Shown here in pieces: positions 1 to 10,729 of a stretch of 41,842 nt of DNA. Numbering within the stretch: position 1 is the stretch's first letter; each line of letters starts with the position of its first letter. A program made the position numbers and the translations under genes. The notes below the pieces were generated by a model. That model had not been told where the DNA came from. It saw only the letters and a list, made by a program, of their open reading frames with translations, and ran no database searches. Source of the stretch: a bacterium (lineage in GTDB: Bacteria; Bacillota; Clostridia; Lachnospirales; Lachnospiraceae). The stretch is taken from NCBI GenBank assembly GCA_030535455.1, contig JAUNJY010000035.1:1-41842 (forward strand), in the 5' to 3' direction.

Positions 1-5
1 AAAAA

Positions 6-42
6 GACAACTAATCCCACCAATCTGGTGGGGTTAGTTGTC
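6..42 (-). terminator. Stem-loop terminator read on the minus strand
   Basis: Sixteen-base-pair stem (6-21 with 27-42, one G-U wobble) and a 5-nt loop. On the minus strand it is followed by five T residues (bases 1-5). It would stop transcription leaving the minus-strand membrane-protein gene that ends at base 90. Confidence 0.7.
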
Positions 43-53
43 TACAGTCTGAA
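32..53 (+). repeat. End of a repeated element (CTACAGTCTGAA family)
   Basis: These 22 bases match 10677-10698 at 19 positions, including the exact 12-mer CTACAGTCTGAA. In both places the motif abuts the left side of a terminator hairpin in the same orientation. The match is seen directly; that it marks a repeat family is inference. Any remaining part of this copy would lie left of the window. Confidence 0.55.
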
Positions 54-84
54 GCACCCATCCATATGGATGAGTGCTTTTTTA
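52..84 (+). terminator. Stem-loop terminator abutting the repeat end
   Basis: Stem 52-63 with 68-79, loop ATAT, then a run of T residues, so it reads as a plus-strand terminator. There is one internal mismatch. It starts directly at the GAA end of the repeat motif, as in the second copy near 10698. Confidence 0.65.
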
Positions 85-9707: not shown

Positions 9708-10421
9708 ATGAGTAAATATAAAGAGGTTCAATCTTTAATTGAGACCTTGGATGAGAAATCAAAAGAATATTTAAAAGAGTATTTTAAGAATGCTCCTGCT
9801 TGGTTGTATGACTCCCTGCAAATTGTAAATTATCCTAGCAATCATACGTTTATTGAACAAGGTTCTACTGTTTCTACTATTACGATCCTTTGCAAAGGTC
9901 TTGTAAAAGGAACCGACTATCCAATTCTTGGAGCCATGTATGATTTCATGTGGTTTGATCCTGTGAAATGTTTTGGTTCCCTGGAGTATATGGTGAAAGA
10001 GCCTACGTTTAATGCTTCGTTAATTACTGCTACTCCATGCACGGTATTGCAGCTTCCTATGGCAATCTACTCAAAATGGATGCAATTGGATCTTAATGCT
10101 TTATATATGGACTCTTCATCAAACACAAGCCAGCTTTTATATGAGATAAGGCGAGAACGAATTTATATCTTTATGCAAGGAACCGATCGCCTCACTTATT
10201 TTCTGACACTATATTATAAGCAGTTTGAGAATAATGGCACTTGTCATATTACGCTTACAAGACAGGAAATATCTGATAGCACAGGCCTTAGCATTCGGAC
10301 TGTAAACCGTGGCTTAACAACTTTGATAGAGAATGAATGTCTTCTGAAATCAGGAAACAATCTGGTAATCCATAAGCAGCAATACGAGAAATTAAATACG
10401 ATGCTTGCGGATCTTCTGTAG
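9708..10421 (+). CDS. Crp/Fnr-family transcriptional regulator
   Basis: The 237-residue product has an N-terminal cyclic-nucleotide-binding-like beta barrel (IEQGSTVSTITILCKGLVKG region, residues 47-67) and a C-terminal winged helix with recognition helix LTRQEISDSTGLSIRTVNRGLTTL (about 180-203). No Fnr-type cysteine cluster is visible. It follows the BMP lipoprotein gene by 26 bp with a GGGG ribosome site, so the two are probably co-transcribed and the regulator may respond to a nucleoside-related signal (inference). A terminator hairpin starts 9 bp after its stop. Confidence 0.85.
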   Translation: MSKYKEVQSLIETLDEKSKEYLKEYFKNAPAWLYDSLQIVNYPSNHTFIEQGSTVSTITILCKGLVKGTDYPILGAMYDFMWFDPVKCFGSLEYMVKEPTFNASLITATPCTVLQLPMAIYSKWMQLDLNALYMDSSSNTSQLLYEIRRERIYIFMQGTDRLTYFLTLYYKQFENNGTCHITLTRQEISDSTGLSIRTVNRGLTTLIENECLLKSGNNLVIHKQQYEKLNTMLADLL

Positions 10422-10429
10422 GCAAGTAA

Positions 10430-10460
10430 AAAGGCCCTTACCTTCTTTGGTAAGGGCCTT
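10430..10460 (-). terminator. First copy of the duplicated terminator hairpin
   Basis: AAGGCCCTTACC (10431-10442) pairs perfectly with 10449-10460. Bases 10428-10432 give T residues on the minus strand, so it is a terminator in that direction; on the plus strand only TTT follows. The second copy is at 10697-10729. Confidence 0.6.
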
Positions 10461-10696
10461 TCAGCTTGTCGACAAAGTCGCCAAGCTTTGGATGAAATCA
10501 GGCTTTCATCCAGTGCCGAAGGAAATGATTAGTGCTCACTCGTGCAAGTCCTTAAAAATAAGGACCTATTCGCACTAATCCGATATCCGAAAAGCGCGGT
10601 TTCCTGATATCGATTTTAATGAAAACCTATGGTTTTTAAACTTTCCTATAAGCAGTGCGCTGAAGTGACTGCTAGAGTTTAATTGCCTACAGTCTG

Positions 10697-10729
10697 AAAG
10701 GCCCTTACCTTCTTTGGTAAGGCCTTTTT
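10697..10729 (+). terminator. Second copy of the hairpin, plus-strand terminator
   Basis: AAGGCCCTTACC (10698-10709) pairs with GGTAAGGCCTT (from 10716), one G shorter than the first copy, followed by TTTTT. It would end transcription from the BMP/Crp operon or of the structured element. Confidence 0.75.

What the first reader, a model, noticed from the sequence alone, without database searches (positions are those of the whole stretch)
10430..10729. Multi-stem 236-bp element set between two copies of a terminator hairpin
A non-coding stretch folds by eye into at least six helices, several with perfect 7-9 bp stems. A roughly 30-bp hairpin is repeated on both sides. The ends are imperfect inverted repeats (CCTTTCAG/CTGAAAGG). 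Either a small mobile element entered a terminator and duplicated it, or this is a structured RNA with a processed or regulated 3' end. No known RNA class came to mind.
Basis: partly seen in the sequence, partly recalled or inferred. Interest (0 to 1): 0.72.

Follow-up and report, generated by a model that had tools for sequence, protein, structure and literature searches.

The report
Mobile RNA-like element duplicating terminator hairpins
A short, gene-less mobile DNA element, present in dozens of copies in this bacterium, inserts exactly at the hairpins that end genes, copies the whole hairpin so that the gene keeps a terminator, and carries an RNA-like fold that evolution has preserved and whose role is unknown.

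Summary
The 235-bp core (10462-10696) has at least 40 copies, itself included, in its own genome, and more in two congeneric genomes. Of 56 full-length copies examined, 48 lie between two copies of a hairpin of 17-38 nt that differs from locus to locus; swapped flanks give 0 of 1959. The copies share TIR-like ends and have no ORF. Contig ends of the same genome, one of them the window's left end, outline a longer collapsed element with the same ends and hairpin duplication (7 pairs); a congener's copy encodes an IS1182-family transposase end. In 28 of 47 IS1182 relatives with both flanks a hairpin of 21-37 bp is duplicated. So this is a MITE of a hairpin-duplicating IS1182 branch. Its interior is a conserved fold with strong covariation (20 of 51 pairs doubly changed; 43 of 50 with divergent relatives), without an Rfam match, more often sense than antisense to the upstream gene (25 versus 7 of 56). 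Its function is unknown; I favour a 3'-UTR role. New variant of a known kind, plus an RNA family candidate not in Rfam.

The parts
10430..10461 (+). 5' copy of the duplicated terminator hairpin (without its own T-tract)
   Evidence: direct repeat D1; duplication test (32 nt, 30 matching)
10462..10696 (+). non-autonomous mobile element (MITE) of 235 bp with conserved RNA-like fold
   Evidence: 40 strong matches in own genome, itself included; 56 full copies aligned
10462..10475 (+). left terminal inverted repeat CAGCTTGTCGACAA
   Evidence: alignment A1; counterpart of the right end and of the IS1182 ends CAGACYGTAGACAA
10683..10696 (+). right terminal inverted repeat, here TTGCCTACAGTCTG (family consensus TTGTCTACAGTCTG)
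10464..10486 (+). helix 1 (10464-10471 with 10479-10486), overlaps the left TIR
   Evidence: 4 of 8 pairs with changes on both sides; one pair (columns 8/20) unpaired in 39 of 56
10489..10512 (+). helix 2 (9 bp)
   Evidence: 7 of 9 pairs never vary in A1, so no support there; 8 of 9 with changes on both sides in A3
10527..10580 (+). helix 3: outer stem, internal loop with conserved TCGTGCAAG / CCTA, apical stem
   Evidence: 8 of 15 pairs with changes on both sides
10582..10611 (+). helix 4 with conserved AAAAGCGCGGTTTC apex
   Evidence: 5 of 11 pairs with changes on both sides
10620..10638 (+). helix 5
   Evidence: 3 of 8 pairs with changes on both sides
10697..10728 (+). 3' copy of the duplicated terminator hairpin, followed by the T-tract
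9708..10421 (+). upstream gene, Crp/Fnr-type regulator, whose terminator was hit
   Evidence: PF13545; ends 8 nt before the 5' hairpin copy
1..51 (+). right end of the longer partner element (read as IS1182-type), cut by the contig end
   Evidence: same TIR; its hairpin matches the one at the start of contig C101
52..79 (+). hairpin duplicated by the partner element (28 nt, 28 of 28 identical to the copy at the start of contig C101)

Best explanation
The window element is a miniature, transposase-less DNA transposon (MITE) moved in trans by a transposase of one branch of the IS1182 family. SHOWN by sequence: it has no ORF, ends in TIRs like those of that IS, is multicopy, and sits between two copies of an intrinsic-terminator-like hairpin that differs from locus to locus; IS1182 relatives do the same. 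[quoted passage not shown] filling the gaps copies the whole stem-loop, so the target duplication is as long as the hairpin. The upstream copy loses its T-tract, the downstream copy keeps it, so the gene should still terminate and gain a 235-nt structured extension of its 3' UTR. SHOWN: the interior fold is conserved with many compensatory changes, and copies lie more often in sense than antisense. INFERRED, with less confidence: the RNA form of the + strand is what is selected, most simply as a 3'-UTR structure that makes the insertion harmless or useful to the host mRNA (for instance against 3' exonucleases). The stated confidence is for the MITE and hairpin-duplication part; I give the 3'-UTR role about 0.4.
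For: Copies: 40 strong matches (own copy included) plus one of 32 bp in G000, with 40 of 109 candidates scored; G001 and G003 also. Duplication: 48 of 56 full copies have a direct repeat of 17-38 nt at >=85% identity, control 0 of 1959; 47 of these 48 are hairpins with >=6 outer pairs, against 57 of 1937 random windows. The base before the element is T in 53 of 56, the base after it A in 52 of 56. Partner: all 7 contig ends of type B find a mate among 8 of type A with an identical palindromic hairpin (21-28 nt); I picked the pairs by that match, and 0 of the 49 other combinations pass. A G002 contig encodes an IS1182 C-terminal domain next to a nearly identical subterminal hairpin (NF033551 2.8e-50, PF13751 4.4e-33). 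Relatives: 28 of 47 with both flanks have a duplicated repeat, all 28 hairpins. Site without element: one hairpin behind the syntenic gene in G002. Another genus: G222 has 2 copies, each with its hairpin twice. Fold: 97.4% of cells paired, 242 doubly changed cells against 71 +/- 7.5 shuffled and 9-37 when slid. Orientation: 25 sense-only, 7 antisense-only, 15 convergent, 9 unclear of 56 (p 0.002); the IS relatives 6, 8, 9 and 5 of 28; difference p 0.04.
Against: 8 of 56 full copies fail the duplication test (L014, L019, L024, L030, L033, L054, L078, L114). The G000 partner is not assembled, so its transposase is inferred from G002; the G002 match is a 187-aa end below the full-length cut-off. 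No IS1182 hit is found in G000 or G001, and G003, one complete contig with at least 18 full copies, has only one IS1182 match, with other ends and a stop, so G003 shows no partner today. 19 of 47 IS1182 relatives showed no duplication. The + strand folds better than the - strand in only 3 of 56 copies (mean -79.3 versus -85.7), and columns 133/146 of helix 4 hold A and C in nearly all copies, a mismatch on + that would be U.G on -; the U.G pairs of helix 3 go the other way. In one search one of five measures, the number of further pair types, does not exceed shuffles (39 against 39.4). No expression data.
Confidence: 0.85

Rival explanations
1. The conserved structure serves transposition, not an RNA function: the fold of single-stranded or extruded DNA helps the IS1182 transposase to find or pair the ends, and the sense bias only reflects which insertions the host tolerates.
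For: Helix 1 lies in the left TIR and the partner IS also has subterminal hairpins; the - strand folds even better.
Against: Relatives without these TIRs and without a detected hairpin duplication (called class II and III here) keep the same fold with further compensatory changes; internal loops are conserved in sequence; 28 autonomous relatives show no orientation bias.
Confidence: 0.25
2. A host regulatory RNA family (3'-UTR, leader or small RNA) that was captured by IS1182 ends and so dispersed; the mobile form is secondary.
For: Class II copies follow stop codons directly (asnS) and some class III copies sit behind a T-box leader (valS); three such loci are at the same place in G000 and G001 (L250/L269, L246/L267, L252/L270).
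Against: No expression or functional data; outside the genus only G222 matched convincingly among 397 sampled genomes of the family (with 5 candidates scored per genome), which is narrow for a host regulator.
Confidence: 0.3
3. The hairpins duplicated by recombination or slippage and the element is not mobile.
For: 4 of 56 copies have another element end directly beyond a flanking hairpin, which unequal recombination could make.
Against: The hairpin differs from locus to locus, the ends are exact, autonomous IS copies behave alike, and G002 has a single hairpin at the syntenic place.
Confidence: 0.02
4. An ORF-less group IIC intron or retroelement, which also prefers sites behind terminators (recalled).
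For: Terminator targeting and structured RNA.
Against: No group II intron family among the Rfam matches; TIRs and a target duplication; the partner encodes a DDE transposase. Reverse transcriptases were not searched for.
Confidence: 0.02

Closest known systems
IS1272 and TnSha1 (IS1182 family, staphylococci); PMC4923244 (passages seen) and PMC5678879 (passages and the first part of the discussion seen)
   Same: IS1182-family transposase; target is a hairpin, in several cases a terminator, with no sequence specificity
   Different: IS1272 is reported to delete or replace the hairpin without target duplication; here the hairpin is duplicated. PMC5678879 Fig. [quoted passage not shown]
IS1630 of Mycoplasma fermentans (IS30 family); title in the reference list and passages of PMC3317919; the original paper not read
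   Same: [quoted passage not shown] four of seven copies with 16-26 bp duplications in PMC3317919
   Different: IS30-family transposase; no IS30 hit in G000-G003
Bacterial MITEs with transcribed structure, such as Correia repeat enclosed elements (PMC5039591, search listing only) and ERIC, NEMIS (recalled)
   Same: short, TIR-flanked, multicopy, near genes, structured when transcribed (recalled)
   Different: fixed short target duplications, other transposase families, no hairpin target (all recalled)
REP/REPIN sequences with RAYT transposases (recalled)
   Same: hairpins and mobility in intergenic regions
   Different: there the hairpin is part of the mobile unit; here each hairpin belongs to the target

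Membership tests
MITE (non-autonomous DNA transposon) | short, no transposase gene | tested here: met
   230-237 bp; no ORF >=60 aa overlaps the window core
MITE (non-autonomous DNA transposon) | terminal inverted repeats | tested here: met
   CAGCTTGTCGACAA against CAGACTGTAGACAA (rc of the consensus right end), 11 of 14
MITE (non-autonomous DNA transposon) | target-site duplication | tested here: met
   48 of 56 copies
MITE (non-autonomous DNA transposon) | autonomous partner with matching ends | tested here: met
   collapsed element in G000 and IS1182 end in G002; none with matching ends seen in G003
MITE (non-autonomous DNA transposon) | mobilised in trans by the partner's transposase | not testable with these tools
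   needs an assay
IS1182 family (the partner element) | IS1182-type DDE transposase | tested here: inconclusive
   C-terminal 187 aa only, from G002: NF033551 2.8e-50 but 171.6 bits against a full-length cut-off of 270; PF13751 4.4e-33, above its cut-off
IS1272-type hairpin replacement | target hairpin deleted, no duplication | tested here: not met
   hairpin present twice in 48 of 56
IS1630 / IS30 family | IS30-type transposase in the genome | tested here: not met
   0 of 4 genus genomes; 3 of 14 control genomes positive
Any Rfam 15 family | score at or above gathering over the element | tested here: not met
   window 0 hits; in 20 relative loci only a T-box (L270) and an L10 leader (L256) beside the element pass their gathering scores
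Structured RNA family | covariation beyond shuffled and slid controls | tested here: met
   four of five measures, five of five; A3 was aligned to the model and leans towards it
Structured RNA family | expressed as RNA | not testable with these tools
   no RNA-seq on hand

The most novel reading that the evidence does not exclude
A mobile RNA module: one structured-RNA fold occurs in this genus in three settings (IS1182-ended MITE at terminators; copies fixed behind stop codons such as asnS; copies behind a T-box leader such as that of valS, or behind other terminators), so that DNA transposition has seeded tens of 3' UTRs and leaders with the same selected RNA, a bacterial counterpart of regulatory dispersal by SINE-like elements, made harmless at landing by duplication of the terminator.
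Probability: 0.3. Interest if true: 0.8.

Novelty: new variant of a known kind. Interest (0 to 1): 0.62.

Why it matters
It shows, at dozens of loci and in relatives from several Bacillota genera, the stem-loop-duplicating outcome that an IS1272 paper drew only as a possibility, and it makes target choice by DNA structure directly testable. It suggests how a high-copy element can live at gene ends without removing termination. The conserved fold, without an Rfam match, is a candidate RNA family whose function can be asked with RNA-seq.

Tried and rejected
Tried and rejected: IS30/IS1630-type partner (no hit). Large cargo elements: solo right ends TTGTCTACAGTCTG before terminators (20 loci looked at, most of them also) follow different genes; in many of them no left end or upstream hairpin copy was found in the stretch fetched, so I read them as decayed copies, but the stretches reached only a few kb. 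A 39-bp match in G129 and a 26-nt match in G198 read as chance. Sub-threshold Rfam matches such as mir-3931 and trpB read as chance. The search for related loci with a window protein in viral contigs gave nothing and was not useful. Strand by folding energy: against + if anything. Target duplications around 40 divergent relatives: only L282 and L284 passed, neither of them class II or III, but the ends of those classes are poorly defined.

The window site is also occupied in G001 (L010); in the tree the G001 copy groups with three other G001 copies (95/79; with one of them 98/83) and the window copy with G000 copies (83/80). That suggests two separate insertions into the same terminator, but support is moderate and homogenisation of copies within a genome is not excluded.

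Counts: the 56 full copies are those of 82 BLAST places with both ends recognisable and 200-260 bp; 26 partial, decayed or contig-cut places were dropped. Only stretches that I had fetched were counted; of G001 only 6 full copies, though one search lists more. Counts of model matches (95, 68, 56, 0 and 1 in G000, G001, G003, G002, G222 at E<=0.01, 150 candidates scored each) include partial ones and probably some reverse-strand matches.

Full report
OBSERVATION. The finding is in the sequence as described. Two hairpin copies, 10430-10461 and 10697-10728, are 94% identical and in direct orientation, 267 nt apart. Between them lie 235 bp that no ORF of 60 aa overlaps. The stretch folds far better than shuffles (z -9.7; core alone -4.3 on + and -5.5 on -). 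Rfam has nothing at its thresholds and only far sub-threshold matches at E<=10. The upstream gene has a Crp-type HTH domain (PF13545); its stop lies 8 nt before the first hairpin.

COPIES. A search of the window's own genome (G000, 4.35 Mb in 126 contigs) with the core gave 41 matches: 40 strong ones at 85-100% identity, the window's own included, and one of 32 bp; only 40 of 109 candidates were scored, so this is a lower bound. Of 195 genomes (own included), G000, G001 and G003 of one genus matched convincingly and G129 by a 39-bp piece. The genus is known only indirectly: a contig of the same length and content as that of G002, same genus, is titled 'uncultured Anaerosporobacter sp.'; NCBI places Anaerosporobacter in Lachnospiraceae.

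TARGET DUPLICATION. I took copies with their flanks. In most, the element lies between two copies of a hairpin that differs from locus to locus. Of 82 places found by BLAST in the fetched stretches, 56 were full length (G000 32, G001 6, G003 18); 48 of 56 have a direct duplication of 17-38 nt at 85% identity or more (27 of 32, 4 of 6, 17 of 18), and 0 of 1959 swapped flank pairs do. 47 of the 48 are hairpins with at least 6 outer pairs, against 57 of 1937 random windows of the same lengths. The duplication is as long as the hairpin, not a fixed stagger. The base before the element is T in 53 of 56 and the base after it A in 52 of 56. Over the 48, the 8 nt after the downstream copy hold 5.5 T on average, those after the upstream copy 3.2: the second hairpin keeps the T-tract. 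In 47 of 48 the two copies agree better in direct than in inverted orientation; the exception is L020. In 4 of 56 another element end lies directly beyond a flanking hairpin.

PARTNER. The right end TTGTCTACAGTCTG or a one-base variant occurs about 40 nt from many contig ends of G000, as expected for a longer repeat that the assembler collapsed. Two kinds of end, A (..GGTGGGGTTAGTTGTCTACAGTCTG and a variant; the window's first 51 bases are one) and B (..AATCCTAGAACCATTTTGTCTACGGTCTG), pair up through their flanking hairpins: all 7 B ends find a mate among 8 A ends with an identical palindromic hairpin of 21-28 nt. I chose the pairs by that match; 0 of the 49 other combinations pass the same test. 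One A end (L105) is left without mate. In G002 a contig end with these ends and a subterminal hairpin that differs from type B by 1-2 bases runs into the C-terminus of an IS1182-family transposase; the match is 171.6 bits, below the full-length cut-off, because only 187 aa are there. IS1182 search of the genus: G002 as said, G003 one match with other ends and a stop, none in G000 or G001. IS30, the family of IS1630, gave no hit in the four genomes.

RELATIVES OF THE PARTNER. 47 have enough of both flanks; 44 have recognisable ends by a loose pattern; 28 have a duplicated flank of 15 bp or more at 90% identity or more, and all 28 are hairpins, 21-37 bp long. Several are copies in one genome. 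They include Clostridium neonatale, Romboutsia, Lachnospiraceae GAM79, Bacillus, Cytobacillus, Metabacillus and Lysinibacillus. The other 19 of 47 showed none. So hairpin duplication is a habit of this IS1182 branch, not of the MITE alone.

SITE WITHOUT ELEMENT, AND SITE OCCUPIED TWICE. In G002 a syntenic stretch (70% identity over 1.3 kb, reaching into the Crp-type gene) is followed by a single hairpin with T-tract and no element, read by eye. In G001 the same terminator is occupied, with its hairpin duplicated (L010); the tree puts that copy with other G001 copies at moderate support, which hints at a second, separate insertion but does not prove it.

MECHANISM. Established DDE chemistry joins the 3' ends of the element to target DNA; [quoted passage not shown] PMC5678879 (passages and first part of the discussion) gives exactly this as pathway b of its Fig. 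13, while arguing that IS1272 itself replaces the hairpin; PMC4923244 (passages) reports hairpin deletion without duplication for TnSha1/IS1272. IS1630 is the published precedent for duplicating inverted repeats of variable length (title and passages in PMC3317919). PMC9208149 (passages) reports IS1182 among families over-represented between convergent genes. The attack sites here are inferred from the products.

THE FOLD. An alignment of the 56 copies (A1) gives five hairpins with an asymmetric internal loop in helix 3. 97.4% of cells form standard pairs, 20 of 51 pairs have changes on both sides, 242 cells are doubly changed against 71 +/- 7.5 shuffled and 9-37 when slid. Against this: the number of further pair types (39) is that of the shuffles (39.4), and many of the changes separate G003 from the rest (18 sequences), so events are fewer than cells. 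A covariance model found more divergent relatives in the genus and, of 397 family genomes sampled with strict filters, only G222 of another genus (one search adds a 26-nt match in G198). G222 has two copies; both are flanked by the same hairpin twice (L284 25 of 25; L286 read by eye), and one ends TTGTCTATAGTGTG. With 39 sequences (A3) 43 of 50 pairs are doubly changed, 424 cells against 116 +/- 9, slid at most 109; A3 is fitted to the model and leans towards it.

RELATED NON-TIR COPIES. Some relatives lack the TIRs and a detected duplication. One group (class II) begins at or just after stop codons, e.g. behind asnS at the same place in G000 and G001 (L250, L269; 89.7% over 739 bp), in L269, L271 and L274 followed by repeats with GGAGCACC..GGTTCTCC or similar. 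Another (class III) sits in leader regions: L270 lies between a T-box leader (116 bits) and valS, and L252 is its G000 counterpart (92.9% over 407 bp); L257 and L260 follow T-box matches below the gathering score.

RNA OR DNA. Orientation: 25 copies are sense only, 7 antisense only, 15 between convergent genes, 9 unclear, of 56 (p 0.002). The autonomous relatives are 6, 8, 9 and 5 of 28; the difference has p 0.04. Genes were called by ORF length only. This favours an RNA read from the + strand. Against it, the + strand folds better in only 3 of 56 copies, and columns 133/146 of helix 4 hold A and C in nearly all copies, which would pair only on the - strand. I judge an RNA role likely but unproven; a 3'-UTR effect on the upstream mRNA is my first guess.

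NOVELTY. MITEs, IS1182 hairpin targeting and inverted-repeat duplication are each known. I found no report of a hairpin-duplicating MITE family of IS1182 type, or of this fold, in ten literature searches (open-licence PMC papers only) and in Rfam.

Noticed in passing
L250, L269, L249, L251, L253, L271, L274, L278 (about 200 nt each): Class II structured elements at or just behind stop codons, in L269, L271 and L274 with further repeats downstream (GGAGCACC..GGTTCTCC or similar); same place behind asnS in G000 and G001. Their boundaries and way of spreading are unknown.
   Followed up: partly
L270:463-702, L252, L246, L267, L273, L275, L256, L257: Class III structured elements in leader regions or behind terminators; one lies between a T-box leader and valS.
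   Followed up: partly
G000 loci L058, L060, L061, L063, L072 and others: Solo right ends TTGTCTACAGTCTG just before terminators and after genes, probably decayed copies.
   Followed up: partly
beside the copies in L025, L035, L040 and L117: Another element end directly beyond a flanking hairpin, so a hairpin-element-hairpin-element-hairpin array.
   Followed up: partly
window 1-79: The window's left end is itself the right end of the partner element plus its duplicated hairpin; the contig breaks in the collapsed repeat.
   Followed up: yes
G003:C1:452787-454178 (L139): A different IS1182-family copy with other ends and one internal stop lies close to a copy of the element (G003:C1:452364-452593).
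   Followed up: no
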